Assembly: GCA_022414725.1 (NCBI GenBank)
Contig: CM039463.1
Coordinates: 31,878,579-31,942,578 of the forward strand
DNA: 64,000 nt
From: Microglena sp. YARC
Taxonomy: Eukaryota; Chlorophyta; Chlorophyceae; Chlamydomonadales; Chlamydomonadaceae
Direction: 5' to 3'
Below, piece after piece: positions 1-56,520 of the stretch. Numbering within the stretch: the stretch's first letter is position 1; each line of letters begins with the position of its first letter. The notes under the pieces were generated by a model. The model saw nothing but the letters and a program-made list of their open reading frames with translations. It had not been told where the DNA came from and did not search any database. The position numbers were made by a program, and so were the translations under genes.

Positions 1-1210
1 GACTCAGGAAGGATATTATAATTATATCATTATCATCATGCTCATCATAATATCACACCTCCCCATCCCGATTGAGGGCCTTGGAAAAGGACTCAGGAAG
101 GATATTATAATTATATCATTATCATCATGCTCATCATAATATCACACCTCCCCATCCCCATTGAGAGCCTTGGAAAAGGACTCAGGAAGGATATTATAAT
201 TATATCATTATCATCATGCTCATCATTATATCACACCTCCCCATCCCCATTGAGAGCCTTGGAAAAGGACTCAGGAAGGACATTATAATTATATCATTAT
301 CATCATGCTCATCATAATATCACACCTCCCCATCCCCATTGAGAGCCTTGGAAAAGGACTCAGGAAGGATATTATAATTATATCATTATCATCATGCTCA
401 TCATAATATCACACCTCCCCATCCCCATTGAGAGCCTTGGAAAAGGACTCAGGAAGCATCTGCTGCCGGTACAAGCACACAAGCAGGTAGGGCACAAGGA
501 AAAGTATTATTATCATCATGATCATCACAATGTCGCACCTTGCCATCCCCATTGAGAGCCTTGGAAAAGGACTCAGGAAGCATCTGCTGCCGGTACAAGC
601 ACACAAGCAGGTAAGGCACAAGGAAAAGTATTATTATCATCATGATCATCACAATGTCGCACCTTGCCATCCCCATTGAGAGCCTTGGAAAAGGACTCAG
701 GAAGCATCTGCTGCCGGTACAAGCATACAAGCAGGTAAGGCACAAGGAAAAGTATTATTGTCATCATGATCATCACAATATCTCACCTCCCCATCTTCAT
801 TAAGAGCCTCGGAAAAGGACTCAGGAAGCATCTGCTGCCGGTAGAAGCACACAAGCAGGTAAGGCACAAGGAACAAGTTATATGCAGCGTCGCAAGCGAC
901 GCGGAAAATAGGCGGAGTGTGTTGGCAACGGAACGTAAGGTGGCAACGATGGAGCTGACCGAAGCGAGTTAGTTACGCAACCGTTGCCTGACGTGTCAGG
1001 CTTCAAGTTTTTTTCGGTCGGACAAACGGACAAATGGGTCAACATGGGAGCTCCCACTCCCTTTAAGAGGGGGCTCCGCCAAAAAGTATTATTATCATCA
1101 TGATCATCACAATGTCCCACCTTGCCATCCCCATTGAGAGCCTTGGAAAAGGACTCAGGGAGCATCTGTTGGCGGTACAAGCATACAAGCAGGTAAGGCA
1201 CAAGGAAAAG
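1..1210 (-). repeat. Array of ARF-GEF exon-16 3' edges with donors
   Basis: Two sub-arrays. At 1-446 an 89-bp unit (starts 1, 90, 179, 268, 357) carries only the last ~30 coding bases, the donor and a short (ATC)n flank. At 446-1210 units of ~120 bp carry longer pieces of the exon ([20 protein letters not shown] on the minus strand) and the donor. A 213-bp element (873-1085) interrupts one unit. Confidence 0.9.
873..1085 (+). mobile_element. Repeat A, copy 1 (~220-bp interspersed element)
   Basis: Starts ACAAGTTATATGCAGCGTCG and ends GGGGGCTCCGCCAAAAA. Other copies lie at 2819-3048, 41256-41492 and, reversed, 17943-18125. Here it splits the array sequence AAGGCACAAGGA / AAAAGTATTATT, which is uninterrupted in neighbouring units, so the insertion boundaries are visible. 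No coding capacity and no clear terminal inverted repeats. Confidence 0.85.
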
Positions 1211-1244
1211 TATTATTATCATCATGATCATCACAATATCGCAC

Positions 1245-1359
1245 CTCCCCATCTCCATTGAGAGCCTTGGAAAAGGACTCAGGAAGCATCTGTTGCCGGT
1301 AGAAGCACACAAGCAGGTCCATGACATTGGTCCATCCCATTTGAAGGCTGTCCCCGTGC
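1245..1359 (-). CDS. ARF-GEF exon 16 (last one inside the window)
   Basis: Acceptor GTGCAG^GCACGG and donor GGGGAG|GTGCGA. Encodes [20 protein letters not shown] then [18 protein letters not shown], matching GNOM YGDYIRTGWRNILDCILRLH and KLGLLPA. Phase 2 to 0. The next exon is off the left edge, beyond an array of copies of this exon's 3' edge. Confidence 0.92.
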
Positions 1360-4300
1360 CTGCACTCAATTAGAGAAATACAGAATTAAATGGTTGAGGG
1401 GGGCAGCCTCTACGCTTGCGCTAGGGCCAACCACCAAACCCAATCAGATATATCTTGAAGGGGGATCAAACCTACTGGTCCAAGCAAAATGCAGGAACAA
1501 TTGAGCAGGTAAGATTAGAGAGAATGAAGGTCCCATTTGAAGGCTGCCCCCGTGCCTGCACATTGATGCACATGTTTTGTTTTCACACAAATAATTAACA
1601 GCAGTTTTCCTTTTCTAAATCTTGTACAGAGCAAGGTACTACATTTTGTCAAATTGGTCAGCGCTTTCTAATGCAAAGCGCACGAACGGTAAATTTGTCA
1701 GCGCTTTCTAGTGTAAAAAGCGCAAAAACTGCGCGCTGCGCCTACAGGAGGCTGAAAAAACTGTGCGAAACGCGCAGAGGGGCTCAAAAAGGCAGTGCGG
1801 CACCGCGCTGCCGCGCGCGCTTAGTAGTACCCTGGTCACGCATATATATACATATATACTGTCAGGCCCTGAGGAGATGAAACCTACTGTCCACGTGCCT
1901 GCACATTTATATACAAGTTTTTTTACAAGTAGATAATTAAAAATAGCTTTCCTTGTTCTGAAACTTGTAAGGAGGTGACATATATAATATATATAGTCAG
2001 GGGATCGAACCTACTGAACCAAGGAAAAGGTATGTGGGGTGTATGATGTGTGTGAGGTGATGAGGTACGTGGGGTGTATGATGTGTGTGAAGTGCGCCCT
2101 AGCTTGGACTACTGCGCATGGTCATGGACAAGTTTTAACACTGTCTAATCAGCTCAGTGAGCTTCCTGGTTTCCGTGCGTGCGTGCAGGGGGGGGGGGGG
2201 GGGGGGGCATTGATGATAAGGATTATATTTTTCCTGGTGCTCTACAGGACTCGGGCCTGGGCTTGACAGGGGGGGGGGGGGGGGCTTGGGATTGGAAGGC
2301 GTTGAGCAGCCTCAAGTTGGTTAAAAATATATACAAATAAAATAATACAGTGCATGGGCATGTAACTCACTTATTGGCAATGTTGGCGATCGTCAATGTG
2401 GTTGCCTTCATCTTAGCGTCCTTGCCAAATGCTGTTTCAGGCCGTCCGGAGGCAATGTGTGCAACCTAAGGCCACCAAAGGTAGATCCACTGTTAGAATT
2501 GGGCAGTGGCAATACAATTACAACAATTATAATTACGGGGGGGGGGGGGGGGGGGGGGAGGGGAGGGAAGGATTCCAACCATCATCAAAATCACAGGGTG
2601 CAAGCAATACAGTAATGAGCCAAAGGAGCAATACAGTGAAGCATAATATTCACCCAGTTTCTAGTCCAGCAAGATATAAGCCTGAAAATAACACATTGAG
2701 CGGGGGTGCATGAGAATTCTAAGGCCAGAAAAGTTAGGAGGGTTATTCTTGTTTGATATTCATTCCTCATTGATATGTATTCTGCGTTCAAACATGTTCA
2801 TACTCAAACACTCCTAGGACAAGTCCTAGGCAGCTTCACAAACGATGCGGAAAATCGGCGGAGAGTGTACTCGGAGCAACAGGTGGCAACGGAATCGAGC
2901 GGACCTAAGCCAATTAGTTGAGATAGTTATCTGACGTGTCAGGCTTCGTGTTGGTCACTCGGTTGTCAGTCAGTCGCACGTTGGTCAAACAGACAACTGG
3001 GTGACCCTGGGGCTCCCCCCCCCCCAGAAGGGCGGCCTTCGCCAAAAATATACACCTGCTCTGGCGGTTTTTATATTTAATTTGGTGCCAAGCTCCATGA
3101 GAAGGTATGTTTATGCTGTGCAACCAACTAGGGCTCACTGCTGAGGAGTCTTGGAAAGATTGAGGATGGTGGTGTCTGCCTCGTCGTCCAACTGATGACG
3201 TGCGGCAATATGAGCCCTTACCTCGGACCCCCCAGGATAACCTTTACTTACTTCGACAATTTCATATATTATTTTATGCAAAGCCTCATGGGAAGGGATG
3301 CTTATACTGCATGAGCGCATCCAACCAGGGCCCACCTGCTGGGGTGTCTTGGAGAGATTGAGGATGATGGTGTCAGCCACGTCGTCCAACTGATGACATG
3401 CAGCAACGTGAGCCCCCACCTCAAAGCCCCCGAGGAGAGCACTACTACTAATTCAGGTACTTGTATAATTCACTGGACGCAAGGCAGGGCAAAGGGATGT
3501 TAATGCTGTATGACAGTTTAAGTGCATCCAACCAGGGCCCACCTGCTGGGGAGTCTTGGAGAGATTGAGGATGATGGTGTCAGCCACGTCGTCCAACTGA
3601 AGACATGCAGCAACGTGAGCCCCCACCTCAAAGCCCCCGAGGAGAGCACTACTACTAATTCAGGTACTTGTATAATTCACTGGACGCAAAGCAGGGCAAA
3701 GGGATGTTAATGCTGTATGACAGTTTAAGTGCATCCAACCAGGGCCCACCTGCTGGGGAGTCTTGGAGAGATTGAGGATGATGGTGTCAGCCACGTCGTC
3801 CAACTGATGACATGCGGCAATGTGAGCCACCACCTCCAAGCCCCCAAGTGCAGCGTGCACTAGTTGCTCGTTGCTGATGCTGTCAATGATTGCGCAGATG
3901 GTGGTGACTGCTGGGTTCCAGATGAGGCGAAACATGGTGGTGTCGAATAAGTGGCGGCCAGGGTCACTGTGGATCATCTGCCCCCGAGACGTGGCAGAGG
4001 TCTGGTGGAGCTCCACAAAGGACTGCTCACTGACATCCATGCTGCTGCTCTCATTCAGGCGTAGAGGCTGTGTGGTGTGGTGGTTGCTTGTTATTGTCGG
4101 TGGTTGGCAGCTTGTGTTGGTGGGTGGTTGTTAGTGGTTGTGGTAGTTGCTTGTCATTGTTGGTGGTTGGATGCTTGTGTTTTTGGTTGGTGGTTGTGGT
4201 CGTTGTTTGTTTTTGGTGTGGATTTACACAGGCGAATTTGAGTTTAAATGAGCTGAAAAGAAACCAGTGGTGTTATGGTGCCAACTCACATGCTGCTGCT

Positions 4301-7300
4301 CTCATTTAGGCGTAGAGGCTGTGTGGTGTGGTGGTTGCTTGTCATTGTTGGTGGTTGGATGCTTGTGTTGTTGGTTGTTGGTTGTGGTCGTTGTTTGTTT
4401 TTGGTGTGGATTTACACAGGTGAATTTGAGTTTAAATGAGCTGAAAAGAAACCAGTGGTGTTATGGTGCCAACTCACATGCTGCTGCTCTCATTTAGGCG
4501 TAGAGGCTGTGTGTGTGTGTATGCGTGGTGTTGGTGGTTGGTTGCGGTCGGGGTGGTTGGTGTCGTTTGGGGGGTATTGTTGTTGTTTTTGGTGGTGGTG
4601 GTTGTTCATTCTTGGTGGTTGCGTAGAGGCTGTGTGTGTGTATGTGGTGCTGGTGGTTGGTTGCTGGTGTTGTTTGGGGGGTGGCTGTGTGGTGTGGTGG
4701 TTGCTTGTTATTGTCGGTGGTAGGCAGCTTGTGTTGGTGGGTGATTGTTGTTGGTTGTGGTGGTGGTTGTTCGCTGTTGGTGTGGATTTGCAAAGGTGAA
4801 TTTGAGTTAAAAAATGCTGGAAAAAAACCAGTGGTTCTTTGGTGCCCACTCACATCTAGGCAACAGCAACTCGTATGTGTGTATGAAAATTTATAGAGTG
4901 CAGAAAAGAAAAGAGGGGGAACGCCTTAAAGTACAGGCAGTATAAATCCTATTATTGTTAGAAAGCTCGGCCGACTTTCATTAACTAACATTCACTATAA
5001 TTAATAATTCACTACAATTAACTAACATAAACATGCCCTACTCACTTCCAAAGCGCCGCTTGCTTTGACGCATAGAGGCTGCATGTTGTAGATGTGCACA
5101 GGCGAATTTGAGTTCACATGTATGAATGTGTGCGAGTGTGCATGTGCATGTTTCGTTACTTATCTCGCTCGCAAAATGTCAACCAAATGAATGGGACGTG
5201 TCTGTCTTGCCATTTCAATTGTATGTCTGTGTGCATGTCTGTGTCATTGGGAGTGTGTACGTTACATTGCGTTACTTATCCTGCTTGCAGGCTGTCCAGA
5301 AAATGAATGGTTTGTGTTTGTCCTGCCTTCAAACCCTAAACCTGTCAACAAAATGAATGGTTTGTGTTTGTCCTGCCTTCAAACCCTAAACCTGTCAACA
5401 AAATGAATGGTTGGGGTTTTCCTGCCTATTCAAGTGGATGCATGCATGCATGTATGTGTCTGTGAGTGTGTGTACGTTACGTTACTTATCTTGCTTGCAA
5501 CCTGTCAGCAAAATGAAAGGTGCGTGTTTGTCCTGCCTTTTCAAGTGTATGTATGTAGCAGTCCAGAGGTAGCCTAGTAGGGACACATGCTAGTAGCTAA
5601 AAATAAAAGCAGTGGTGTGTAGATGGTCTGCATGTGCACATGTGGGTTAAGTGAATACATATAATATATAATTTAAAATATATCTTCAAAATAGAATTTA
5701 CAAAATAGAATTAATATATTATAAAGGAAGTGAGTTGTTAAGTTTCTTACCGTCTTGATGATGGAATAGTAGATGTCATTCAAAAACTCTTCTGGGAAAT
5801 CTGATTTCCCGGAAATCTGACACTCGTTGACGCCCCGCAAATTGCGCCTGAACGCTTCCAGGGACATCTTGTTCTTGACCTGCAAGGGGAGACATGTATG
5901 CCATGTTACATATTGTTCTTGACAAACTAAGGGGAGATATGAATGGGGCTGCTACATGAATGGGGTCCTAAGGGGTAACTACATGAATTGGGTTGGTACA
6001 TGCATGGGGTTACTAAGGGGAAACATGACTGCCATGTTACATATTGTTCTTGACAAACTAAGGGGAGATATGAATGGGGCTGCTACATGAATGGGGTCCT
6101 AAGGGGTAACTACATGAATTGGGTTGGTACATGCATGGGGTTACTAAGGGGAAACATGACTGCCATGTTACATATTGTTCTTGACAAACGAAGGGGAGAT
6201 ATGAATGGGGCTGCTACATGAATGGGGTCCTAAGGGGAGACATGCTTAGGGGTTACTATATGAATTGGGTTGGTACATGCATGGGGTTACTAAGGGGAAA
6301 CATGACTGCCATGTTACATATTGTTCTTGACTAATTAAGGGGTTCCATCTTCTTCTTGACCTCCAAGGGGAGACATGGATGGGGTTGCTACATGAATGGG
6401 GTTACTAAGGGGAGACATGCTAAGGGGTAACTACATGTTTTTGGCATCGTGTCCTTGACCTCCAAGGTGGCACATGAATCCCATGGTATTTAAATAAGGT
6501 TTAGTACAATACCTTATCGAAAATATCATATGATGTATCGTGTATGATATTGTAGGATACATCACCCAGTAACCTTGGGAGCCAGTAAGAAATTGACACC
6601 ACACCACACACACTCACAAGGCACACACGCACACACAAATGCACACACACACGCGCTAACACACACAAACACATTGTATGCTATATCACCCAGTAACCTT
6701 GGGAGCCAGTAAGAAATTGACATCTTACGTAACATGAAGGACCTTCAAAACAATTCATGGAATCAAAGCTCTGGCACAAATTCTTGTATGTAAAATTCAA
6801 TCCAACACAATCCAATCGAGCACAATCCAATCCGTTACAATGAAATGGATTGCGTTTCAATCCAGCCCAATCAGATCTTATCCAATGTATCCTAACCAAT
6901 GTATCTGTTCCATTTCGATCCGTTCAATCAAACCCAAGGTATCCTTTCAATCCGTCATTTCAATCCGTTCAATCAAACCCAAGGTATCCTTTCAATCCGT
7001 CATTTCAATCCGTTTCAATCAAACCCAAGGTATCCTTTCAATCCGTCATTTCAATCCGTTTCAATCAAATCCAAAATACATTACACCCACTCCAATGGAA
7101 ACAATACTCGATCCCCTCCAACAACATGTTCAGAGAATGTAGACACACCTAAGATTCTTTTGCGGGCTACGCATGGCAGCTATCAGCAAGTTCCATGAGA
7201 TAGCCACCGGTTCAAGACCAAAGCTTTCAGCTGCGTTGGATTGACTGTCGATGACAGCTTCCAGACGGACTAGCTAGCTTCAGGTTAGGTCGAAGAACAG

Positions 7301-10300
7301 GGGAATGAAGCTGCCTAGAAGCTGTTACGTATCCCTCAAAAAGAAAGAGTGCACACATCTGGTTATTGTGTTGATCTGTGTTGGGCGTGATGACTGAGTA
7401 GGCTATGAGCTATAAAATACATGATGTATACAGTTGACCATGTACACACTCACCCCGTCGTTGTGTCGATCAGTGTTGAGCATGCTGACTGAGTAGGCCA
7501 TGAGCTATATCATACATGATGTATACAGTTGACCATGTACACACCCACCCCGTCGTTGTGTCGATCTGTGTTGAGCATGATGACTGAGTAGGCCAAGAGC
7601 TATATCATACATGATATATACAGTTGACCATGTACACCCACCCTGTCGTTGTGTCGATCTGTGTTGAGCATGATAACTGAGTAGGCCAAGAGCTATATAA
7701 TACATGATGTATACAGTTGACCATGTACACCCACCCCGCCGTTGTGTCGATCTGTGTTGAGCATGATGACTGAGTAGGCCAGGACATATGCCGCATCTGC
7801 CGACTTGAAGATGGACTGGTTGCTTGCGTAGAAGTTGCGGCCGAAGGAGTTGATGATTCGATCAATTTTCTGAGCCTCTCCTGTGGTGGTGGTGGTGGTG
7901 GTGGTGGTGATGATGTCCGGGGTGGGGTGTGTTTGTGTGTGGTGGTGGTGGTGGTGGTGGTGCATGGGGTGATAGTGGTGGCCGAAGGAGTTGATGATGT
8001 GATCGATTTTCTGAGCCTCTCCTGTGGTGGTGGTGGTGATGATGTCCGGGGTGGGGTGTGTTTGTGTGTATGTGTGTGTGGGTGTGTGTACGTGTGTGTG
8101 TGTGTGGGTGGGGGGGAGGAGGTGGTGTTGGTGCATGGGGTGATAGTGGTGGCCGGATGAGTTGATGATGCGATCAGTTTCTGAGCCTCTCCTGCGGGCA
8201 AGGGGTAGTGACCAGGTTGATTGTGTACGGGGTGTTGAAATTAACTTACCCTGTCGCTGCACAATTAAACTAACGATTAAAAATTCGGATTCGGAATCCC
8301 ACAGTGCCTAGTTTCGATAATTAGTGCGCATTAGTTAACGGCTATCTATAGGGAAATCTTCCTGGTGCTCGCGGGAGTGGTTGGCGGAACCATTGGCATG
8401 TGGAAAGCTGAGAGGTGCGAGGGGTAGAGACCAGGTTGATCACTTAATATGGGGAGGGGTTGATGATGTGATCGATTTTCTGAGCCTCTCCTGCGGGCAA
8501 AGGGGTAGAGACCAGGTTGGTAGTGGAATATATCAAGCTTGGAATTTGCAAGCTATGCCGTGTTGAAAATATCTTTGATACCTTTAAATGTGGCCACACC
8601 GTGGTTTTTGATCATGAAATATATCCGCATATATACATACGTGGTGTATGTACGTTTTGCAGCGTGTGTGGGAAGGTAGATGGTGGGAGGGGGCCTAAAG
8701 GCGCGTAGAAGTGACGGCCACAGGACTTGATGATGTGATTGATTTAGGGGGGTATAGACAGGTGGAATATGGAGAGGAGCTGATGATGCGATCTATGTTC
8801 TGAGCCTCTCCTGCGTGCAAGGGTTGGAGACCAGGTTTGTAATGGAATATGGGGTTATGTGGGTGATGTGATTGGTTGTATGAGCTCCTCCTGTGTGCAA
8901 GGGTTAGAGACCAGGTTGGTAATGGAATGTGGGGAGGAGTGCAGGTGCGATCTATTGTCTGAGCCTCTCCTGTGTGCACGGCTTAAAGACCAGGTTGATT
9001 ATGAAATATGGGAAGGAGTGGGTGATGTGATCGATTTTCTGAGCCTCTCCTGTATGTTAGAGGTAGAGACCAGGTTTGTCATGGAATATGGGGTTACGTG
9101 GGTGATGTGATCAGTTGTATGAGCTTCTCCTGTGTGCAAGGGTTAGAGACCAGGTTGGTAATGGAACATAGAGAAGCACACAGTATAAGTCAAGGAAGTA
9201 ACTATTTTGTTTTATTTTGTGAGTGCAGTCACAAGTCTCCTAAACCCTTATAGCAATTCAGCAGATGATTTGGATTTGGGGTCTCGAAGCGCTTTGCAGT
9301 TCACAGTTTATACCTCGAAATTGAGAATATGACCCGAGAATTCTGACAATTCGGAGAAATGTCGAAACAATTGCCTGAAGAAGCAGAGGTATGAAATACA
9401 AACTACAAGATCCAAATATAAATCATCCGCTGAATTAAACCCTGGCCCTGTCATAAACCCCGGGTTCGGTCTGCTGAACTCAATTCCGTTGCCACCTGTC
9501 GCACCAGTAGCCAACATTCCCCGCCTAGGACTTGTCTCTTGTGAATGTGGTCAAAAGGCCCCTAAATACTTACCCCTAGAGATATCATGCATCTTACATT
9601 TGGTCTGAGTGCTTAGGATCAACCCCAAGCTTAATAACTACAGAGTCACCCCCCAAGCTTAATAACTACAGAGTCATCCCCCAAGCTTCATAACTACAGA
9701 GTCACCCCCCAAGCTTCATAACTACAGAGTCACCCCCCAAGCTTCATAAACTACAGAGTCACCCCCCAAGCTTCATAACTACAGAGTCACCAAGCTTCAT
9801 AACTACAGAGTCACCCCCCAAGCTTCATAACTACAGAGTCACCCCCAAGCTTCATAACTACAGAGTCACCCCCCAAGCTTCATAACTACAGAGTCACCCC
9901 CCAAGCTTCATAACTACAGAGTCACCCCCCAAGCTTCATAACTACAGAGTCACCCCCCAAGCTTAATAACTACAGAGTCACCCCCCAAGCTTAATAACTA
10001 CAGAGTCACCCCCCAAGCTTAATAACTACAGGGTCACCCCCAAGCTTAATAACTACAGAGTCAACCCCCAAGCTTAATAACTACAGAGTCAACCCCCTTG
10101 ATTCACCTGGGAGCCTGAATGACTCAAGAAACAGGTGGATGTCTGATTGCCTGTTTGTCTGCACATTCCTGTGCCTTACTGCCCCCCGGCCCTGTCGTAA
10201 ACCCTGCGTTTTGTGAGTGTGGTCAGAAGGCCCCTACTAAATACTTAACCCCCTTGTCTCACCTGGGAGCCTGAAGGACTCGAGGAACAGGCGGATGCCT

Positions 10301-11926
10301 GCATCGAATTTGATATCTCTGAAGTCGAAGGATGAGGTGTAAGCCTCTAGCACCTTGATGTAGAAGGGGTCCCCCTCGCCCAACAGTTCGCCGATGGTAT
10401 CCTTTTTCAAGCCAGGGCATACATGGAGGAAGCGACCGAGGCAACTGGACAACTCATCCTCACTGGCTATGTCCTGAGGGGAGGCTGTCGCAGCTAAGGC
10501 ACTTCCAGCAAGGACTGGCATAAGCTTCTTTTCCTGTGAGAGATTGGGTCCAATGTGTTTTGATAATAATGCTTGAGTTGAAGTTTAATTGATTATGTTC
10601 ATGCCAGAAGAAACTACCCCACCCCACCCTCCCTAACACATCCTCTGCACGCACACACCCCAACTCCTCCGCCCACTCCCACTCCCGCTCCTCTCCCCTC
10701 CGCTCAAACTCCCTGGTAGGTTCCAAGCCGCCCTACCTGAAGGTAGCGGAACCCCTTCTTGTGGTTCTGGTTGAAGTGCTGTACTGCAACCGAGAGCTTG
10801 TGTTTCAGGTGCCTCTCATACACCACAGAGCGCAAGTGCATGAAGTTCCAAACCCATCCCCACACACCCGAACACATCACCTGCACGCACACACTCCACG
10901 CAACTCCTCCACCCACTTCCTGCAACCCTCCCCCTCCGCTCAAACTTCCTGGTAGGTTCCAAGCCGCCCTACCTGGAGGTAGCGGAACCCCTTCTTGTGG
11001 TTCTCGTTGAAGTGTTGTACCGTAACCGAGAGATTGTGTTTCAGGTGCCTCTCACACATCACTGAGTGCAAGCGCATGAAGTTCCCAACCCTACTCCACC
11101 CACCCTAACACATCACATACGCCACCCAACTGCCCCACACATCTCCCCCTCTGCCCAAACTCGCTGGTAGGTTCCTAACTACCCTACCTGAAGGTAACGG
11201 AACCCCTTCTTGTGGTTCTGGTTGAAGTGCTGTACTGCGGCCGAGAGCTTGTGTTTCAGGTGCCTCTCATACACCACGGAGCGCAAGCGCATGAAGTCCG
11301 ACAGAGGAGCACCAGGCGCTGAACCTCCGCCACCACGCGCGACAGCCGGAGAAGCAGCAGTGCCTACGCTAGCAACATCTCTGGCATCCACAGCAAGGGG
11401 AGGGAGGGAGGAAGAGAGGGGGGGGGGGGGGGGGTAGGGTGGAATGTGTGTGGGCAGGGTGTGGATGGGGTGGAATGGGGTAGATAGGTGTGGATGGGTT
11501 GGAAAGGGTGGGTGTGGGTTGGAGCAGATAGGATGTGGATGGGGTGGAACGGGTGTGGAATAGGGTGGAATGGGAGTGGATGGGGGTGGATAGGGTAAAA
11601 AGGGAGGAATGGGGGCAAGAAAAAATCACCATCATCATCTTGAAACTGTCTGAAACAACCATGTTTTGAAACAACCATTTGATTACATTCTGCGATCAGG
11701 AGTGTTTGGCAGAAGTTGGTGTTGTACTTGGAAAGTGGTGGTGGTTTGTGTGTGTGTGTGTGTGTGGGGTGGGGTGGGTGGGTGGGGGGGGGGGGGAGGG
11801 GGTCTGCAGAAGTTGGTAGTGGTGTGTGAGTGTGTGGGGGGGGGATCTGCAGAAACAAGTGCTGTAACTTGGAAGGTGGTGGTGGTGGTGGTGGTGGTGG
11901 TGGTGTGTGTGTGTGCGCGTGTGTGT

Positions 11927-11957
<31 letters not shown>

Positions 11958-13552
11958 TCTGCAGTAGTAGTTGTACAACCCATGTTCAACCCGCCTGCAG
12001 ACGGTGAGCAGCCTGAAGGTTGATGAACCTTGTAACCACCAAGGACCAAGGCATGCTAACACACCAAGGCATGCAGTGCCCAGATATCAATGGAGGCATG
12101 TGAAGACAAACAATCAAATACTGTGACATACCCTCTGTAAAACGATTGTTTGGGGTTCAGTTCATCAGTGCTTTTTCTTTTTAAGCCCTTCATATACGGT
12201 TGTGCAAGTCCCTTAAGCCTATTTGACCTACCCCTGGACTGTAACATACATACGTACATACCCTCACCTCTGGGCTCGTTCTTGGCGAACTCCATGGACG
12301 CAGGCCCACCCAAGGACATTGCCATCGCGTCCCCTGCTTCCACAAGGGGCGTGAGGTCCAGGTGATTGCCATTAACCAGCGGCGTCCAGATGTCAATGAA
12401 GTAAGGGAGCTCAAGCTCGGCGGAGGGGGGCTGGAAAGCGTTGGAGCGATTCTCGGCTGCTATGGCATTGAAGATAGCCAGCAAGGCCTCCAAGCTTATG
12501 AATTGAAGAGAGCCTGGGGAGCCCTTGGCAGCAGGCATGGCTGTTTTGGATAAGAGGGTGCACATATCGGCGAACAAGTCCCCCCGTTCCAATCTGAAGA
12601 GGGAAAGTGGTGTTTTAATGTGTATATGTGTGTAGGCGCATTGCTTTTTGGATAAGAGGGAGCACACATTAGCGAACAAGTCCCCCCGTTCCAATCTGCA
12701 GTAGGACTGTGGTGTGAGTATGTGTGTATGCGCTTTTCTGTTTTGGATAAGAGGGTGCACAAATCGGCGGACAAGTCCCCCTGTCCCAATATATAGGGAG
12801 AAAAGTGATAGGTTGGGGTTGGTTAGGGTATCGGCTACAATGGCCAGCAAGGCCTCCAAGCTTATGAATTGGAGGGGCCCGGGCATGGCTGTTTTGGATA
12901 ACAGGGTGCACAACACCACCCAATCAATCTGAGGGGGGAACATGGTGTTCGTGTATATGTATATATGCATGTATGTGTTTATGTATGTGCATGTGTTGGG
13001 GTAGGTTGGAGGGTTGGAGGGTAGGAGGTAGGAAGAAAGACGAAAAGGGGGAGGGGGGGGGGGGGGGGGGGGGGGGGGCAGAATACTGTGCCAGGAATCA
13101 ACAGAAAATTATTTTTTACACAGCACACCTGCAGTCACAATTTGCGAAGATGTGATGCCCAAGTTCTTGCCAATTGGAAATAATGTACAGTTGAGATAAC
13201 ATAGGACCATTTGTTTTATTGTGCCGCACCTGCAGTCACAGTTGGCAAAGATGTCATGCACGAATCCAGGCTGGCGGCACATGTCCAGCACCCCCTCAAG
13301 GGCCGCCTCTTGCTGCTCTATTGAGTTCATGTTCTTGCCGTCAGCTAGAGGCAGCAGCACTCTGTCCATCACCACCTCTATCTGGCCGACGGAGATGCTA
13401 CCCATGAATGTGTAGACGCACAGGAGCACTTGGCAGAAGCCATTGATTATGGATACGCTAGTGAAGTTGACCTGTGTGTGTGTGTGTGTGTGAGTGTATG
13501 TGTGAGTGTGTGTGTGAGTGTGTGTGTGAGTGTGTGTGTGAGTGTGTGTGTG

Positions 13553-13636
<84 letters not shown>

Positions 13637-15928
13637 TTAAATTCCAGTCCCAGCCCCAGTTCAAATTCCAGCCCCAATTCAAATTCAAGCACCAGTTCGA
13701 ATTCAAGTTCCGGTTCAAGTTCACGTTTCAATCACAGTTCAAGTCCCAGTCAGGGTACTACATTTTGTCAAATTGGTCAGTGCTTAAAGCGCACAATCGT
13801 CAAATTGGTCAGCGCTTTGCAGTGCAAAAAGCGCGAAAACTGCGCGCTGCGCCCACATGGGGTTGAAAAACTGCGTGAAACGCGCAGTGGGGCTCAAAAA
13901 GCGTGCGCGAAATCGCGCTGACGGGCGCGCTCTGTAGTACCCTGGTTCTAGTTATAAAAGTCTAAGCCCCAGTTCAAATTCAAGTTCCAGTCTAAGTCCA
14001 ACTTGACTCACAGCTGCTTGGCACATGGCACGGCCAAGATTAAGTCCAGTCACACACACACAAAACAAATTTAAATCCAACTTCATTCACAGTTGCTTGG
14101 AAAATGGCACGGAGGAAATCAAGTCAAGTCAAGTCACACACACAAAACAAGATTGAGTCAAGTCACACACACAAAACAAGATTGAGTCAAGTCACACACA
14201 CAAAACAATATTGAGTCAAGTCACACACACAAAACAAGATTGCGTCAAGTCACACACACACAAAATCAAGTCTAACTTTACTCACAGCTGCTTGGCACAT
14301 GGCATGGAGGAGATCCACGTGGATCTGATACACCAGTACCTCAAAGTGCGCCAGATCAGGCCCCACAGCTAGCAGTGCTGCATGCACCATGTCCAGAGCA
14401 AACACAATCGTCTCCTCGACCGGCTCTCTTCCCATGGCCGGGTCTTTCAGTATCAACTCGATGAGGAAGTCCAGGATGTCTGATGCCGCTTTCACACCGT
14501 GCTTGCATGCCAGGGCGGGAGGGGCAGGGGCTCCTACACTAGCGTTGGCTGCCTGCATCTACGAGAGGGAGGTACAGATTCAATTGATGATGCTGATGAT
14601 AATGGCGATGATGACTGTGTCAACTCAATGAGGAAGTCCAGGATGTCTGATGCGGCTTTCACACCGTGCTTGCATGCCAGGGCAGGCGGGGCAGGGGCTC
14701 CTACACTAGCGTTGGCTCCCTGCATCTACGAGAGGGAGGTACAGATTCAATTGATGCTGCTGCTGCTGATGACGATGATAATGGTGATGATGACTGTGTC
14801 AATTCAGTGGGAAAGTCTAGAATGTCTGCTGCGGCTTTCACACCGTGCTTGGGTGCCAGGGCAGGGAGGTCAGGGGCTCCTACACTAGCGTTGGCTGCCT
14901 GCGTCTACAAGAGGGGGATGCAGATTCAATCGATGACGGTGACTGTATCAATTCAATTAAGGAATCCAGGATGACTGCTGCGGCTTTCACATCGTGCTGG
15001 CTAGCCAGGGCAGGGGGGGCAGGGGCTCCTACACTAGCATTGGCGTTGGTGTGAGTGCCTTTATAGTTGAATGTTCAGCATGGTCAGCCGCATTCAGCCT
15101 TGTTCAGAATGCCCAGCATGTTCAGCCAATGATCTAAGGTACTTCTTAAAAATCCAGCCTTGACAAGTGTTCAAACTGTCTGCAGCCATGTGATTACACT
15201 CTGTTCCCGATCCATAGTGCCGTGAAGTAGTTTTCATGCTAACCATGCTAATGTAGTAGTTTGTATCCTACCCATGGTGTGTAGCAGTTTTTATGCTATC
15301 CATGTTTACTGCGCCCGCAGATGGTGGGCAGCCTGGAGGCTGACAGACCATGTACTGAAAGCAAAACAATTAAACGCAGCCTCACACGAGGGGGGCAGGG
15401 GGGAGGGGGGGGGGGGGGCAAGAATAAAGTTATCAGACGTTCATCAGAAGTTGTTGTTTTCACCCACCCCCACCCACCCACCTAAACCCTGGGCCTTACC
15501 TTCTCAAAGCTGGCCAGATCACGCAATCTGCCGAAGACTGTCCTGATCATTTGTGCACATATGTGCCGGCTGTAGTATCCCATAATATCTCCATATTCCT
15601 GCTCGGGTTGTTAGACAAAGCAACTGTGTGAGCCAAGAGCTAGTTTACTCGTTTGATACATACAGTTTACACGTTTGATGCACTTCTTTCAGCAGATTAA
15701 GAGCAAGAGCAAGAGCAAGAGCAGAGAGAGAGAGAGAGAGAGAGAGTCTCAAGATTGGTCAAACATGTCTCAAGATTGGTACCTAGAGGCCCAAGACAGG
15801 TCAGGCTGGAGGGTGGACATCAAAGAGTGAGTGTGCACGTTTGATGCACTACTTTCAGCAGATTAAGAGATAGAGCAAGGGGGGGGGGGAGAGGGAGGGA
15901 GGGAGGGAGGGAGAGGGAGAGGGAGAGG

Positions 15929-15975
<47 letters not shown>

Positions 15976-28700: not shown

Positions 28701-31700
28701 AGGAAGAGCAAATGCTGTCGGCTCTACTCCATAGAAAGGCCACTTTGAATGGAACCGCTGCCTCTGTGCCTTATGAACTGGAGGCGCAGGAAGAGCAGAT
28801 GCTGTCGGCCCCATTTCCGCATGCATCACTTGAAAGCAGCCTAGGGCATCTGGGCGAGGATGAGGGGGGCCGGGGGTTACTCTCTGATCCAGGAAGAGGC
28901 GCCTTGCAGTCTAGATTCAGCCCCACTTCTGAGGTCCAGGAAGAGACTGAAGGGACGCATTTTAGAGGTGAGCAAGAGAGGAAGCAAACAATAATAGTGT
29001 CAGTACCATGCCCAAAAGGACCCATCTTTTAGGTATGGGACCGCGGGTCACTCTCTGACGTGCTAGTCTGAAGGGACACATTCTAGAGGTGGGTATTTTA
29101 GGCATTTTAGTGGTGGGCAGGATTATTTCCAGGTGTTGAGGGCAAGCTCAAGTGTGGGTTGCAGTGTTAGTTGGAATGACGATGGTGGTGAAGATATAGC
29201 CCCACTTCTGAGGTCCAGGAAGAGACGTGCAAGTCTGACGGGACACGTTTTAGAGGTGGGCAAAGGAGGAAGCAAAAAACAATAGTGCCTGTACCATGCC
29301 CAACAGGATCCAGAGAGAGGGTGGGGGGGGGGGCTCAAATTAAACCTTGGTGGTCAGGACTGCTCTCATATGTCAAGGGCCAGCTCGAGTGTGGTTTTCA
29401 GTGTTACTTGGAATGATGATAATGATGATGGTTGCAATTTCCTGGTGCCCTACTGGACTCCAAGTGTAGTTTTCAGTGTTACTTGGAATGATGATGATGA
29501 TGATGATGGTTGCATTTTCCTGGTGCCCTACTGGACTCCAAGTGTAGTTTTCAGTGTTACTTGGAATGATGATGATGATGGTTGCATTTTCCTGGTGCCC
29601 TACTGGACTCCAAGAGTGGTTTTCGGTGTTACTTGGAATGATGATGATGATGATGATGATGATGGTTGCATTTTCCTGGTGCCCTACTGGACTCCAAGTG
29701 TGTTTTTTTGTGTTACTTGGAATGATGATGATGATGATGGTTGCATTTTCCTGGTGCCCTACTGGACTCCAAGTGTGGTTTTCGGTGTTACTTGGAATGA
29801 TGATGATGATGATGGTTGCATTTTCCTGGTGCCCTACTGGACTCCAAGTGTGGTTTTCGGTGTTACTTGGAATGATGATGATGATGATGATGATGGTTGC
29901 ATTTTCCTGGTGTCCTACTGGACTCCAAGTGTGCCCGCAGATTGAAAGGTCAAGAGAGACTTATGATCAGCACAAACAAGAAGGGATCGGGGTTCTTGTA
30001 CCGTCTCATGTGCAGAGATATGACTGCCACAATACTGACCAACCATTTCACTTGGAATCATAACTTCGTTATACCATCCTAATCATTCCTACTGCCACAA
30101 GCAACATGATTGCTACTGCCACAAGGATTAGTTGGTTGGTTGGTTGGTTCTCACCATCCTAGCCTTGCTATTGCCACAAATGACCTGCCCTTCAATATTT
30201 CAGGAATCATAACCTTTTATAGATCCTAGCCTTGCTACTGCCACAAACAACCTGCCCTTCAACCAGCAACTGACCTTCCCTTCCAAATCGCAGGAAGCAT
30301 AACCTCTCACACCATCCTAGCCTTGCCACTGCAACAAGCATTACTGCTACTGCCACAAACAACCTGCCCTTCAACCAGCAACTGAACCTCCCTTCCAAAT
30401 TGCAGGAAGCATAACCTCTCACACCATCCTAGCCTTGCCACTGCAACAAGCATTACTGCCACTGCCACAAACAACCTGCCCTTCAACCAGCAACTGAACC
30501 TCCCTTCCAAATTGCAGGAAGCAAAACTCTCACACCATCCTAGCCTTGCCACTGCAACAAGCATTACTGCTACTGCCAAAAACAACCTGCCCTTCAACCA
30601 GCAACTGACCTTCCCTGCCATATTGCAGGAAGCAAAACCTCTTCACACCATCCTAGACATTAATACTACCACAAGCATTACTGCTGCTGCCAAAAACAAC
30701 CTGCCCTTCCATCAGCAACTGACCTTCCCTGCCATATTGCAGGAAGCAAAACCTCTTCACACCATCCTAGACATTAATACTACCACAAGCATTACTGCTG
30801 CTGCCAAAAACAACCTGCCCTTCCATCAGCAACTGACCTTCCCTGCCATATTGCAGGAAGCATAACCTCTTCACACCATCCTAGACATTAATACTACCAC
30901 AAGCATTACTGCTGCTGCCAAAAACAACCTGCCCTTCCATCAGCAACTGACCTTCCCTGCCATATTGCAGGAAGCAAAACCTCTTCACACCATCCTAGAC
31001 ATTAATACTACCACAAGCATTACTGCTGCTGCCATAAACAACCTGCCCTTCCATCAGCAACTGATTTTCCCTGCCATATTGCAGGAAGCATAACTTCTTC
31101 ACACCATCCTAGCCATTGCTACTACCACAAGCATTACTGCCACTGCCACAAACAACCTGCCCTTCCATATTGCAGGAAGCATAACGTCTCAGACGATCCT
31201 AGATATTGCGACCGCCACGAGCAAAGCCGGGACCGGACAAACCTTGTCATTAGCCGAGGCAGACGACTTGGCCAAGCAGACACAGGCACTGTTTGGAAGC
31301 TTGTTTCAACTGAACAGACTCATGAATGGACCTAGAGGGAAGGAGCTCAATCTCAAAACCCTTGTAAGTTGAGTTGAACTTACAAAACAATCAAATAAAG
31401 CTTGTTAAACAAAAAGTGAACTCGCTTATGGATGGACCTTGAGGCAAGGAGCTCAATCTCGAAACCCTTGTAAGCTGCAAAAACGTGGGCCACAAATAAT
31501 ATTGTACATTCCTACTAACATGCTGTCACCCTTATCTGAGTCACACACACAAAAACACACAAAAACACACACACACACAAAAACACACACCTTCTTGCCC
31601 GTAACTTGGCGTTTAGAAACCCATGCCCCCCGTTGCTGGCTTCTCATTGTATCTAGCCCCATCCAACCTGCAAATTGATATGCCGCACACTAGTATAAAC

Positions 31701-36420: not shown

Positions 36421-36529
36421 CGAAGACCCCCCCCCCCCCCCCCCTCCCCCAAGTGACTGAAATCAGGCAAAACACGGTTTGTGTGTGAGTACAACTGGAG
36501 ATCCCCGCTACACCCTACAAAGAAATTCA

Positions 36530-36748: not shown

Positions 36749-36779
<31 letters not shown>

Positions 36780-36963: not shown

Positions 36964-37003
<40 letters not shown>

Positions 37004-37926: not shown

Positions 37927-37934
37927 GGCTTCAT

Positions 37935-40654: not shown

Positions 40655-40711
<57 letters not shown>

Positions 40712-43700: not shown

Positions 43701-46700
43701 GCGTTTACTTTAATTGTATTGCAAAGCTTTCAATTTTAGTTGATTGCAAAGTGTTTAATCTAATTGTAATGCTCAGTTTTCAATTTTGTTTCATTGCCAA
43801 GCTGTTTTTTACACTCATAAAAAAATGAACAGATTAGCTGCTTGTCTAATCGTCCGGCTACACTACCTACCTACCTGGGATTCATCAAAGCCTCAAAGAG
43901 TGGTGGCACTTCCCTCATGCCATGAACAGTCTTCCGTCACGTCTCCAGCTGGCCGGCAAGCATTGCATTAGTATTTTTTCACATTCATTAAAAAAGTGAA
44001 AATAAAAATTGGAAAAATAAAATGAACAGATTAGCTGCTCGTCTGATCGTCCAGCTACACTTCCTACCTGGGATTCAGCAAAGCCTCAAATTGCGGTAGC
44101 ACCTCCCTCATGTCATGAGCAACCTTTCGTCACATTTCCAGCAGGCCAGCATATGTCAAATTAGTCTTTATTCACAGTCAAATGGACTGATTAGCTGCTC
44201 GTCTGACCGTCAGACTACACTACCCACCTGGGTTTCAATGAAGCCTTGCATTGAGGTAGCACCTCTCTCATGTCATGAACAGTCTTTCGTAGTGTATCCA
44301 GCACCTTGGCATGATTTACATTAGTCTTTTTGCACAGTCACATGAACAGACTACCTGCTTGCCTAATCGTCCGGCTACACTACCTACCTGGGATTCAGCA
44401 AAGCCTCAAATTGAGGTAGCACCTCTCTCATGTCACGAACAATCTTTCCTCACGTCTCCAGCAGCCCAGCATGCTTTGCATTAGCCTTTTTTCACATTCA
44501 TAAAAAAGTGAAAATGAAAAAATAAAATGATCTGATTAGCTGCTCGTCTGATTGTCCGGCTACTTAACCTACCTGGGATGCAGCAAAGCCTCAAATTGAG
44601 GTAGCACCTCTCTCATGTCGTGAACAATCTTTTGTAGTGTCTCCAGCACCTTGGCACGCTCCTCCTGATTGAGCCCTGCTGAGACCCCACTGCTGTCTTG
44701 CCGAGCGTCGAATTGATCAATTTTATCCTCCAGCCCGATTAGCTGCTGCGCCAACTCAGCCTCGTTCACACCCTGGCCACTCCCTGTAAGGTATTATTTC
44801 TTTATGTAAGCTATTATGTAAGCTATTATGTAAGCTATTATGTAAGGCATTATGTAAGGCATTATGTAAGCTATTATGTAAGGCATTATGTAAGGCATTA
44901 TGTAAGCTATTATGTAAGCTATTATGTAAGGCATTATGTAAGGCATTATGTAAGGCATTATGTAAGCTATTATGTAAGGCATTATGTAAGCTATTATGTA
45001 AGGCATTATGTAAGGCATTATGTAAGCTATTATGTAAGGCATTATGTAAGGCATTATGTAAGGCATTATGTAAGGCATTATGTAAGGCATTATGTAAGGC
45101 ATTATGTAAGCTATTATGTAAGGCATTATGTAAGGCATTATGTAAGGCATTATGTAAGGCATTATGTAAGGCATTGTGTAAGGTATTATGTAAGCTATTA
45201 TGTAAGGCATTATGTAAGCTATTATGGAAGGTATTATTTGAGCTATTATTATTTCCTTTAAGTCCAGGGGTAGCTGCGTTAGCTAAAGGGACTAGCCCAA
45301 ACTCAAACAATCAATCATAAGAACAAAGGTCATACTGGTAGCGCAAGTCCTAAATTATGCACCTTTGTATTTTGGGGGTGATACGTAAAGAGTCTGCGGG
45401 GATTCTTTGGGGGTTATTTTAGGGGGATAATTTGGGGTGTTACTTTGGGGGGTTATTTTAGGGCGGGGGGGGGGGGGTTATTTTAGAGGGATAATTTGGG
45501 GTGTTACTTTAGGGGGTTATTTTAGAGGGATAATTTGGGGTGTTACTTCAGGGGTTTATTTTAAGGGGGGGGGGGGTATTTTTGGGGGATAATTTGGGGT
45601 ATTACTTTGGGGGTTATTTTAGGGGGGGGGGGTTATTTTAGGGGGATAATTTGGGGTGTTACTTTAGGGGGCTATTTAAGGAGGGGGGGGGGGGTATTTT
45701 AGGGGGATAATTTGGGGTGTTACTTTAGGGGTTATTTAAGGGGGGGGGGGGGGGATTTTAGGGGGATACTTTGAGGTGTTGCTTTAGGGGTTAATTTAGG
45801 GGGGGGGGGGGGGTATTTTAGGGCGATAATTTGGGGTGTTACTTTAGGGGTTATTTAGGGGGGGGGGGGGGTATTTTAGGGGGAATTTGGGGTGTTACTT
45901 CAGGGGTTATTTTAGGGGGGGGGGGTATTTTAGGGGGATAATTTGGGGTGTTACTTTAGGGGTTATTTAAGAGGGGGGGGGGGTATTTTTAGAGGGATAA
46001 TTTGGGCTGTTACTTTAGGGGTTATTTTAGGGGGGGGGGGGGGGGGGTATTTTAAGGGGATAATTTGGGCTGTTACTTTAAGGGGTTATTTTTGGAGGGG
46101 GGGGTATTCAGGGGATAATTTGGGGTGTTACTTCAGGGGGTTATTTTAGGGGGGAGGGGGGGGTTATTTTAGGGGACAATTTGGGTGTTACTTCAGGGGG
46201 TTATTGTAAGGGGGGGGGGGGGGTATTTTAGGGGGATAATTTGGGGTGTTACTTTAGGGGGTTATTTTAGGGGGGGGGGGGGGGGGGGGGGTATTTTTAG
46301 GGGATACTTTGGGGGGTACTTTAGGGGTTATTTTAGGGGATAATTTGGGTTGTTACTTTAGGGGGTTACTTTAGGGGATAATTTGGGGTGTTACTTTGGG
46401 GGTTATTTTAGGGGGATAATTTGGGGGTCTTACGTGAAGAGCCTGCCAGGTTACTTTGGGGGTTACTTTTGGGGGTGTGGGATTATTTGGGGGGGGCAGC
46501 TGGGTGTAGGGTTATTTTTTATTTTTGTGGGGTTATTTTTGTGGGTTTATTTTGGCGGGGTGGGGTTACTTTTTTTAAATTACCCCTCTGAATGACTGCA
46601 CCTCTGCAAAGTACGGCTTCAATTATTTTCATATAATTTAATTGTAATATTAATTAATTGTAATTAGATCTTGATTTATTTTTTAAACTTCAACCTGCTT

Positions 46701-49535: not shown

Positions 49536-49568
<33 letters not shown>

Positions 49569-52500
49569 TCATGTGGCTCTGAAGATAATGGTTAATGGTA
49601 TTTACAAGCATCGCTATTTTGTTTGTGTGACGCGTTGCCATTCTGCCGCTGCATGGCGACGCATGGGTCCAACTAAACTAGTCAGAAATGCCCCCCCCCA
49701 CACACACACCCCCACCCCCACCCCACCCCCACGCTCCGTGCCTTTGTGCAAGTTAACGGGCTGAACCCTCAATCTCATGCCTCATAATAAGTCGTACTAT
49801 TTTTTGTTAATAGTTTATTTATATTTTTATTAGTTTATTTATGTTTTTATTTATTTATAAACAGTGATGCTAAACTGCACTCCTCGAGTGTTTTTAACTG
49901 ATCACGCTACCAATATTCATTGATTGATTTATATATTCATAGAATATTCAGTATTTATTTATTCATTTATAAATCGAATATTCAGTATTTATTTATTCAT
50001 TTATAAATCGAATATTCAGTATTTATTTATTCATTTATAAATCGAATATTCAGTATTTATTTATTCATTTATAAATCGAATATTCAGTATTTATTTATTC
50101 ATTTATAAATCGAATATTCAGTATTTATTTATTCATTTATTAATAGACGACCAGAAGAGGGATTACCCTAAGTTGCAGTCCAGCCGTGTGGAAATAAAAC
50201 CTAATACGAGCACTGAAAACCTAGTAAATCGTTCAAAATTCCACTGCTTTTTTGTGCCGCCCTCAATTAATTCATTTATTAATAGAAGAGCGGAAGAGGG
50301 AAGGATCTTGACAAACTGCAGTTCCCCACTATTTTCAGGTGGTATAATTTTAAGTACTCACTATTTGCAGTATTTATTATTTTCAGCACTCGCTATGTTC
50401 AGCATTTACTCTTTTCAGAATTTATTATTTTTGGCACTCACTAAGTTAAGCAGTTACTATGCTTGGCATTTCTTATTTCCAGTCATTATTTTCAGCATTT
50501 ACTATTTGCAGTACTGACTATTTACTGCACCCACTTTTTCAGCAATTAATATTTGCATCATTTATTATTTTCAGCATTTACTATTTGCAGTACTGACTAT
50601 TTACTGCACCCACTTTTTCAGCAATTAATATTTGCATCATTTATTATTTTCAGCATTTACTATTTGCAGTACTGACTATTTACTGCACCCACTTTTTCAG
50701 CAATTAATATTTGCATCATTAATTATTTTTAGCATTTACTGTTTTCAGTAATTACTATTTATAGCACCCACTATTTTCAGCAATTACTATTTGTATTACT
50801 CACTATTTCAGCAGGGCTTGTATGGATGGACCATGGTGCATGTTTGCAGATTCTATATCCCCTGAAGTTCCATACTCCCTATTTTCAGCATTTACTATTT
50901 TCAGCATTTATTATTTTCAGTACTCACTATTTTCAGCATTTATTATTTTCGGCATTTAAAAATACTCAGCATTTCCTATTTTCAGTTCTCACTATTTGCA
51001 GCATTTAATATTGCCATACATTATAATTTTCAGTGCTTTTTATTTTCAGAACTCCCATTTTCAGCATTTTTTATTTTCAGTTTTTTTGTTTTCAGCAGCG
51101 CTTATATAGCAGCAGCATAGTGAAAATATGCAGCTGCTATAGCTCTTGCAGTTGCACACTCACCATTTCAGCACTTCCTATCGCAGAACACTCTATTTTC
51201 AACACTCGCTATTTTCAGCAGCGCTTGTATAGCAGCAGCATAGTGAAAATATGCAGCTGCTATAGCTCCCGCAGTTGCACACTCACCATTTCAGCACTTC
51301 CTATCGCAGAGCACTCTATTTTCAACACTCGCTATTTTCAGCAGCGCTTGTATAGCAGCAGCATAGTGAAAATATGCAGCTGCTATAGCTCCCGCAGTTC
51401 ACACTCACCATTTCAGCCCTTCCTATCGCAGAACACTCTATTTTCAACACTCGCTATTTTCAGCAGCGCTTGTATAGCAGCAGCATAGTGAAAATATGCA
51501 GCTGCTATAGCTCCCGCAGTTGCACACTCACCATTTTTCAGCAGCTTCCAGCAGTATCGCAGAACACTCTATTTTCGACACTCGCTATTTTCAGCAGCGC
51601 TTGTATAGCAGCAGCATAGTGAAAATGCAGCTGCTATAGCTCCCGCAGTTGCACACACTCACAGCATTTCAGCAGCTTGTATAGCAGCTATCAGCAGAAC
51701 ACTCTATTTTCAACACTCGCTATTTTCAGCAGCGCTTGTATAGCAGCAGCATAGTGAAAATATGCAGCTGCTATAGCTCCCGCAGTTGCACACTCACCAT
51801 TTCAGCACTTCCTATCGCAGAACACTCTATTTTCAACACTCGCTATTTTCAGCAGCGCTTGTATAGCAGCAGCATAGTTAAAATATGCAGCTGCTATAAG
51901 CTCCCGCAGTCTGCACACAGCTCACCATTTCAGCACTTCCTATCGCAGAACACTCTATTTTCAACACTCGCTATTTTCAGCAGCGCTTGTATAGCAGCAG
52001 CATAGTGAAAATATGCAGCTGCTATAGCTCCCGCAGTTGCACACTCACCATTTCAGCACTTCCTATCGCAGAACACTCTATTTTCAACACTCGCTATTTT
52101 CAGCAGCGCTTGTATAGCAGCAGCATAGTGAAAATATGCAGCTGCTATAGCTCCTGCAGTTGCACACTCACCATTTCAGCACTTCCTATCGCAGAACATT
52201 CTATTTTCAACACTCGCTATTTTCAGCAGCGCTTGTATAGCAGCAGCATAGTGAAAATATGCAGCTGCTATAGCTCCTGCAGGTGCACACTCGTGTGCAG
52301 CGCTTGTATAGCAGCAGCATAGTGAAAATTAGCCACTATCAGCGCGCCAGTCCAACTATTTCAGTACTCACCATTTCAGCATTTACTATTTTTCTAAAAA
52401 TCTACTACTTTCAGAACTCAAAATTTCCAGCATTTACTATTTCCAATAGTTACTACTTTTAGAACTCACCATTTTCAGCATTTACTACTTCCAATATTTA

Positions 52501-56520: not shown

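What the first reader, a model, noticed from the sequence alone, without database searches (positions are those of the whole stretch)
1..56520. Introns built from tandem copies of their own exon edges, across three genes
In the ARF-GEF, the unknown plus-strand gene and the SET gene, most introns contain 1-10 tandem diverged copies of the neighbouring exon end, with coding end, splice site and flank. Donor edges are copied into the downstream intron and acceptor edges into the upstream intron, on either strand. I count this at ARF-GEF exons 3, 5, 7, 8, 9, 10, 11, 12, 13, 14 and 16, unknown-gene exons 2-6, and SET exons 2-8 plus the last. A local duplication process seems focused on exon-intron boundaries. 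It could explain intron growth and generate many decoy splice sites. I know of intron gain by tandem duplication, but not of systematic boundary amplification.
Basis: partly seen in the sequence, partly recalled or inferred. Interest (0 to 1): 0.95.

Follow-up and report, generated by a model that had tools for sequence, protein, structure and literature searches.

The report
Introns padded with exon-edge copies
In this large, probably algal, genome many introns are swollen by old tandem duplications that often catch the end of the neighbouring exon and leave decoy splice sites; random duplication in introns that were once short can explain most of it, without a process aimed at exon edges.

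Summary
Copies carrying exon end, splice site and intron flank lie beside 7 of 14 modelled ARF-GEF junctions, two more ARF-GEF edges, and 5 of 8 tested edges of the SET and unknown genes, all on the intron side. It is not confined to the window: in 30 introns (23 kinesin, 7 ARF-GEF) 35 of 60 junctions and 25 of 30 introns carry copies, and 69% of intron bases are local repeats. Duplication focused on boundaries is not needed. Repeat coverage does not peak at junctions, random stretches also carry local repeats, and the direction rule follows from any duplication crossing one junction. A neutral model gives 36±3 copied junctions of 60 if introns grew from about 120 bp and took in unique DNA, but it over-predicts donors and under-predicts acceptors. 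With longer ancestral introns it gives only 19-24 of 54-60. A bias of about 1.5-fold is therefore not excluded. Two leads: AG is kept in 58 of 59 acceptor copies, GT in 29 of 37 donor copies; exon overhangs cluster near 60 bp. No transcript data were available.

The parts
13230..13471 (-). ARF-GEF (Sec7 family) exon; its donor 13230 has only a 33-bp partial copy
   Evidence: Viterbi
12258..12593 (-). ARF-GEF exon (donor 12258 keeps the frame; 12268 was used in the counts; neither is copied); its acceptor edge is copied upstream (tandem array 12535-12790; 3 spanning copies)
11188..11380 (-). ARF-GEF exon; its donor edge is copied downstream at 11032-10928 and 10796-10695 (85% and 90% identical)
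10263..10533 (-). ARF-GEF exon carrying the first part of the Sec7 domain; donor edge copied at 10145-10080
7735..7880 (-). ARF-GEF exon (Sec7); acceptor edge has one spanning copy upstream, donor edge three downstream
7366..7781 (-). Tandem array (about 95 bp x 4.4) that includes the end of exon 7880-7735, its donor and intron flank
5751..5879 (-). ARF-GEF exon (Sec7 end); acceptor edge has two spanning copies upstream (131-bp array 5884-6237 lies next to it)
3750..4067 (-). ARF-GEF exon; donor edge copied three times downstream (array 3118-3845, period 207); acceptor edge copied twice upstream (array 4134-4519, period 188)
14453..15044 (-). Tandem array (179 bp x 3.6) holding two copies of the acceptor edge at 14552 (tested at 14551; Viterbi puts the acceptor at 14558)
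50400..52330 (-). Intron stretch with 10 copies of the SET-gene donor edge at 52950 (offsets 732-2508 bp; approximate limits)
44020..44473 (-). Tandem array (160 bp) in the stretch that holds four copies of the SET-gene donor edge at 44573
30233..31168 (+). Tandem array (114 bp x 8.3) with seven copies of the acceptor edge at 31176 of the unknown plus-strand gene
26972..29029 (+). Long open frame of the unknown gene; the tandem repeats listed in it (periods 51, 117 and 87 bp) are multiples of three; donor edge 28967 has one copy downstream

Best explanation
The genome undergoes frequent local tandem duplication of segments of roughly 70-300 bp, apparently anywhere. In introns these duplications survive; in coding sequence only those that leave the exon whole (or stay in frame) survive. 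A duplication that crosses a junction leaves the real exon edge in place and puts an extra copy of exon end, splice site and flank inside the intron: downstream of a donor, upstream of an acceptor. Repeated rounds, expansion of existing arrays and point mutation have grown introns from perhaps 80-200 bp to about 1 kb (median 949 bp in the 30 introns). If placement is random, each step from length I to I+u spares a given junction with probability I/(I+u), so the chance that it is never copied is ancestral length over present length; a tenfold grown intron is expected to have most of its edges copied. Shown here: the copies, their direction, their presence in unrelated genes, the coverage profile, and that the model gives the right total of copied junctions for short ancestors. 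Inferred: random placement, short ancestral introns, and the molecular step (slippage, unequal exchange or microhomology-mediated repair).
For: Introns are 69% local repeats in 30 introns. Random 2.5-kb genome chunks are 32% covered on average (median 0.24), with a spread from 0 to 0.99 (72 chunks, 8 of 80 dropped for N). No peak at junctions. Mean number of copies over donors (1.26) and acceptors (2.09) is below that over intron interior positions (2.92); exon interior 0.36 (kinesin introns). Nearest copies of different junctions have different unit lengths (70-481 bp) and exon overhangs (15-130 bp), as independent events would; of four kinesin donors at profile position 234-235 three are copied, with overhangs of 130, 83 and 49 bp. 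The simulation from 120-bp ancestors gives 35.8+-2.8 copied junctions, 35 seen. Without unique insertions, ancestors of 5-15% of present length give 0.61-0.67 copied junctions at the three lower mutation rates and 0.38 at the highest, with interior coverage of 0.88-0.97 and 0.70.
Against: The short-ancestor model misfits in detail: it gives 21.0+-2.3 (80 bp) or 19.1+-2.3 (120 bp) donors and 17.4+-2.5 or 16.7+-2.5 acceptors where 15 and 20 are seen, and 0.60+-0.03 or 0.57+-0.04 of intron bases traced to exon edges where 0.49 is seen. With 200-bp ancestors it gives 28.0+-2.9 of 58 (35 seen, P 0.013), and with free, mostly longer ancestors 19-24 of 54-60 (P 0.002 or less; z 2.7-3.9). Ancestral length was not measured, and the short-ancestor version was built after the excess was seen. 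Exon overhangs are more central than random (none of 32 above 0.75 of the unit, 17% simulated, KS P 0.006; with all 35, KS P 0.033). Acceptor copies keep AG more often than neutral decay predicts. Introns are denser in repeats than random stretches (0.67 against 0.32), which transposon content may or may not explain.
Confidence: 0.7

Rival explanations
1. Duplication is biased to exon-intron boundaries, most of all acceptors, because of something there: pyrimidine-rich or CA-rich tracts that slip, R-loops or nucleosome edges, or a splicing-linked repair process.
For: 20 of 30 acceptors copied against about 10-11 in the neutral model with longer ancestral introns; share of intron sequence traced to exon edges 0.49-0.54 against 0.33-0.39; central overhangs; acceptors above expectation even in the short-ancestor model (20 against 16.7+-2.5, P 0.13).
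Against: No coverage peak at junctions; donors only 15 of 30; the short-ancestor model removes the excess in total junction counts.
Confidence: 0.2
2. The acceptor copies are kept because they do something, for example as stepwise (recursive) or alternative 3' splice sites, so arrays at acceptors are selected.
For: AG intact in 58 of 59 acceptor copies; averaged per junction 0.983 against 0.798 for exon dinucleotides (P 0.0014) and 0.860 for the nearest exon dinucleotides (P 0.012).
Against: Exploratory test on 20 junctions with related copies inside arrays; donor GT behaves neutrally (29 of 37; 0.861 against 0.790, P 0.22); many copies in the window carry frameshifts and stops, seen by eye.
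Confidence: 0.08
3. The copies are partly real exons (alternative or mutually exclusive), so the exon map is wrong.
For: Some copies stay open in frame; 2 of 34 profile-level copies share both ends with their parent.
Against: 31 of 34 profile-level copies have one exon edge only; part of the ARF-GEF model (exons 11380 to 3750) aligns unbroken to independent proteins using one copy of each edge.
Confidence: 0.02

Closest known systems
Tandem genomic duplication crossing an intron-exon boundary (potato RdRp gene; Ma, Lan and Niu 2016, PMC4974935; abstract and introduction read)
   Same: A tandem duplication that includes part of an exon, a splice site and intron flank; extra sequence ends up inside an intron.
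   Different: There one event made a new intron by activating a cryptic donor. Here I see no new intron; existing introns lengthen, the authentic edge appears to stay in use, and it has happened at more than half of the junctions examined, often several times.
Intron gain by tandem duplication of an AGGT-containing exon segment (Rogers 1989 and Hellsten 2011, as cited in PMC4974935; Drosophila cases in PMC2891723, abstract and passages read)
   Same: Same class of mutation; part of the duplicate becomes intron sequence.
   Different: That model needs an exonic duplication with both splice signals and makes an intron where there was none; here the unit spans an existing junction.
Minisatellites and satellite arrays in introns (recalled, general)
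   Same: Tandem arrays lengthening introns.
   Different: Here the units are mostly low-copy, diverged, specific to each intron, and about 70% of the repeated intron sequence (0.49 of 0.69) traces to that intron's own exon edges.

Membership tests
Intron growth by boundary-crossing tandem duplication | Copies contain exon end, splice site and intron flank in direct orientation beside the original | tested here: met
   96 spanning copies (37 donor, 59 acceptor) at 35 of 60 junctions
Intron growth by boundary-crossing tandem duplication | Authentic edge kept on the exon side, copies only on the intron side | tested here: met
   31 of 34 profile-level copies, none wrong-way, 2 sharing both ends, 1 neither; window edges
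Intron growth by boundary-crossing tandem duplication | Transcripts use the authentic edge and skip the copies | not testable with these tools
   No RNA data; protein alignment supports one copy per exon at four ARF-GEF joins
New-intron gain by AGGT tandem duplication | A novel intron position absent from relatives | not tested
   No relatives with known intron positions were compared; the duplicates examined lie inside existing introns
Introner elements | The same intron sequence family inserted at many unrelated gene positions | not tested
   Copies were compared only within each locus; exon coding sequence in the copies points to local duplication
   Junction coverage 28 of 46 (0.61) against 0.67 interior in kinesin introns, no peak; the interior is an imperfect control, see full report
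   Excess with long or 200-bp ancestral introns, none in the total with 80-120 bp ancestors

The most novel reading that the evidence does not exclude
Tandem duplication in this genome is biased to 3' splice junctions, and the resulting arrays of near-perfect decoy acceptors keep their AG because they are used or tolerated as stepwise 3' splice sites, so that the spliceosome reads the last copy of a ladder: a boundary-directed form of intron growth.
Probability: 0.1. Interest if true: 0.8.

Novelty: new variant of a known kind. Interest (0 to 1): 0.52.

Why it matters
Single boundary-crossing tandem duplications are known from scattered genes. Here is a genome where more than half of the sampled splice junctions (35 of 60) have been copied into their own intron, some ten times or more, with real and decoy sites sharing about 70-95% of their flanks. 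It is a natural experiment on how the spliceosome picks the upstream-most donor and downstream-most acceptor of near-identical sites (the pair that defines the shortest exon), and on how introns grow. The rule that a junction's chance of remaining uncopied equals ancestral over present intron length can be tested in any annotated genome and offers a way to estimate ancestral intron length.

Tried and rejected
Boundary focus by a coverage profile was tested and not seen. Reach and copy number from junctions against interior points showed no excess, but interior points inside boundary arrays are not independent controls, so I turned to simulation. The first simulation was too young (mean identity about 89-96% against a median of 83% seen) and was recalibrated. 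A model with short ancestors and unique insertions was added last, after I had seen the excess, so it is a post hoc rival and not a prior prediction. Selection against decoy sites was tested by splice-dinucleotide retention: not seen for donors, and the reverse for acceptors. Gene finding in the 20 random stretches gave too few sure genes and was not used. Six of 29 kinesin introns with junction score under 3.4 were dropped, and locus L041, fetched with them, was not used in the 30-intron set. One search ran on 7 donors and stopped with an error before the remaining edges, which searches then covered. Organism not identified: named green-algal hits of the ARF-GEF model include Coccomyxa (49-50%) and Helicosporidium (39%), and plant-type TTTAGGG-like runs occur; probably a green alga, by inference. 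Literature: nine searches gave single cases of tandem duplication at boundaries but no genome-wide report of the kind; that is limited to the held open-access library and those terms. Passages of PMC8226300, PMC10946897 and PMC11228838 were also seen.

Full report
What is there. The window lies on contig C2 (94.8 Mb) of a 568-Mb eukaryotic assembly with 2390 contigs. Half of the window has a similar copy of itself within 3 kb (51% of bases; 0.04 at 56-60 kb and 0.25 at 60-64 kb). The ARF-GEF runs on the minus strand: Sec7 profile pieces sit at 10458-10255, 7896-7732 and 5882-5754. A codon and splice-site Viterbi trained on kinesin exons gives, among others, exons 13471-13230, 12593-12258, 11380-11188, 10533-10263, 7880-7735, 5879-5751 and 4067-3750. 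A protein joined from the last five aligns continuously to a 416-residue metagenome protein (62%, up to the start of exon 5879) and to a 601-residue one (37%), so these four joins do not rest on the repeats themselves. For the counts I used donors 12268 and 14340; 12258 keeps the frame where 12268 does not, and neither is copied; 14286, the Viterbi choice in place of 14340, lies in a repeat.

The copies. At 7 of the 14 junctions of the seven ARF-GEF introns there is at least one copy that spans the junction by 12 bp or more on both sides. The donor at 7735 has three downstream copies at 91-95% identity and the donor at 11188 has two at 85% and 90%. Donor 3750 has three and the acceptor at 14551/14552 two; of eight edges tested in the SET and unknown genes, five have 1-10 copies and three have none within 6 kb. 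The SET donor edge at 52950 has 10 copies. The spanning copies found all lie on the intron side.

It is not confined to this window. Profile searches of the same assembly show the pattern without any gene model. One dynein gene on C1 has a match to profile positions 1-110 followed by seven shorter matches that end at 107-108. Over the kinesin and dynein tables, 34 weaker matches repeat a stronger neighbour; 21 share its end and lie downstream, 10 share its start and lie upstream, 2 share both ends, 1 neither, and none lies the wrong way round (113 of 128 kinesin and 66 of 66 dynein matches). I fetched 20 kinesin loci and placed 29 introns between abutting profile matches in 19 of them; 23 with score 3.4 or more were kept. 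With the 7 ARF-GEF introns this makes 30 introns and 36.0 kb. In them 15 of 30 donors and 20 of 30 acceptors have copies (37 and 59 copies), and 25 of 30 introns have at least one. Local repeats make up 69% of intron bases; 43% are in direct copies of units that include an exon edge, 49% counting copies of copies.

Is the boundary special? The direction rule is no evidence: a tandem duplication across one junction, with the true exon kept, can only leave its extra copy in the intron. The test is frequency. Coverage by local repeats climbs from 0.1-0.3 deep in exons to about 0.7 in introns and shows no peak at either junction (kinesin introns only). At 90% identity or more, 3 of 23 donors and 6 of 23 acceptors are covered, against 0.23 of interior bases. 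Copy depth is lower at junctions (1.26 and 2.09) than in the interior (2.92). Interior points are not a perfect control, since a duplication covers two stretches of intron but crosses a junction once, so a neutral model expects junction coverage below interior coverage.

Neutral simulation. I simulated random tandem duplication with unit lengths drawn from the measured spacing of repeats, exons kept intact and intron bases mutating, and scored the result with the same pipeline. With ancestral intron length free (5-90% of the present) and matched for coverage and, in most runs, identity, 19-24 copied junctions of 54-60 are expected where 31-35 are seen, and the share of intron bases traced to exon edges is 0.33-0.39 expected against 0.49-0.54 seen. 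Taken alone this suggests about a 1.5-fold bias, most of it at acceptors. A second version starts from 80, 120 or 200 bp, lets unique DNA (such as a transposon) enter, and requires 30 intron bases in acceptor units; it gives 38.5+-2.7, 35.8+-2.8 and 28.0+-2.9 copied junctions (the last of 58), with shares of 0.60, 0.57 and 0.47. Introns that grew about tenfold from 80-120 bp thus account for the total with no bias. The fit is not perfect: that version gives 19-21 donors and about 17 acceptors where 15 and 20 are seen, and more edge-derived sequence than is seen. I still prefer it. It was built after the excess was seen, and the ancestral length is not measured, so a modest bias stays open.

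How it follows. With random placement, a duplication of length u in an intron of length I spares a given junction with probability about I/(I+u). The product over growth telescopes to ancestral length over present length, whatever the unit size. This is my derivation, checked only by the simulations. Copied exon edges are then a by-product of intron growth by tandem duplication, filtered by selection on exons. In line with this, the arrays that Tandem Repeats Finder lists inside the long coding frame at 26972-29029 have periods 51, 117 and 87, all multiples of three (the list was cut at 150 rows by position).

Two leads that do not fit simple decay. First, the exon part of the nearest copy is 15-130 bp, median 60, and does not exceed 0.75 of the unit in 32 cases where the simulation gives 17% (KS P 0.006; with all 35 cases KS P 0.033). 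For acceptors this may reflect the need to keep branch point and pyrimidine tract upstream of the surviving AG (smallest intron part 31 bp); this is an inference, and donors show the same shortage. Second, 58 of 59 acceptor copies keep AG, although exon dinucleotides are kept at 0.80-0.86 (P 0.0014 and 0.012, per-junction resampling, 20 junctions), while donor copies keep GT at about the neutral rate (29 of 37). Selection against decoys would do the opposite. The sample is small and the test exploratory.

What is known. A tandem duplication crossing an intron-exon boundary was described in one potato gene, where it created a new intron (PMC4974935, abstract and introduction read), and tandem duplication of exonic segments with a proto-splice site has been proposed for some Drosophila introns (PMC2891723, abstract and passages read). 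Long introns in core volvocine algae are discussed without this feature in the passages I saw of PMC8226300. I found no report of the genome-wide pattern in the nine searches listed under Tried and rejected.

Noticed in passing
window 59195-62392, minus strand: A 1066-codon open frame with endonuclease-like and reverse-transcriptase-like motifs (YADD seen by eye): looks like a LINE-type retrotransposon. This part of the window has few local repeats.
   Followed up: no
L012 (G000:C1:45000001-45010000): Dense long frames on both strands including one that reads like histone H3: possibly an inserted giant-virus stretch. Recognised by eye only.
   Followed up: no
L026 (G000:C2:55000001-55010000): One repeat pair covers 86% of the stretch, and transposase-like frames recur within it: a large tandem duplication of a DNA-transposon-like element.
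   Followed up: no
kinesin match table: A set of matches spanning roughly profile positions 1-243 with about 43-54 bits and long open frames, on many contigs; they look like a dispersed multi-copy family, unlike the exon-by-exon kinesin genes.
   Followed up: no
C1:61043188-61044687 and C1:29822771-29823906: Two dynein genes carry donor-edge arrays at the same junction (profile position about 109) with similar unit starts (57-68): either one old array inherited by both genes or repeated events at one place. The letters were not fetched.
   Followed up: partly
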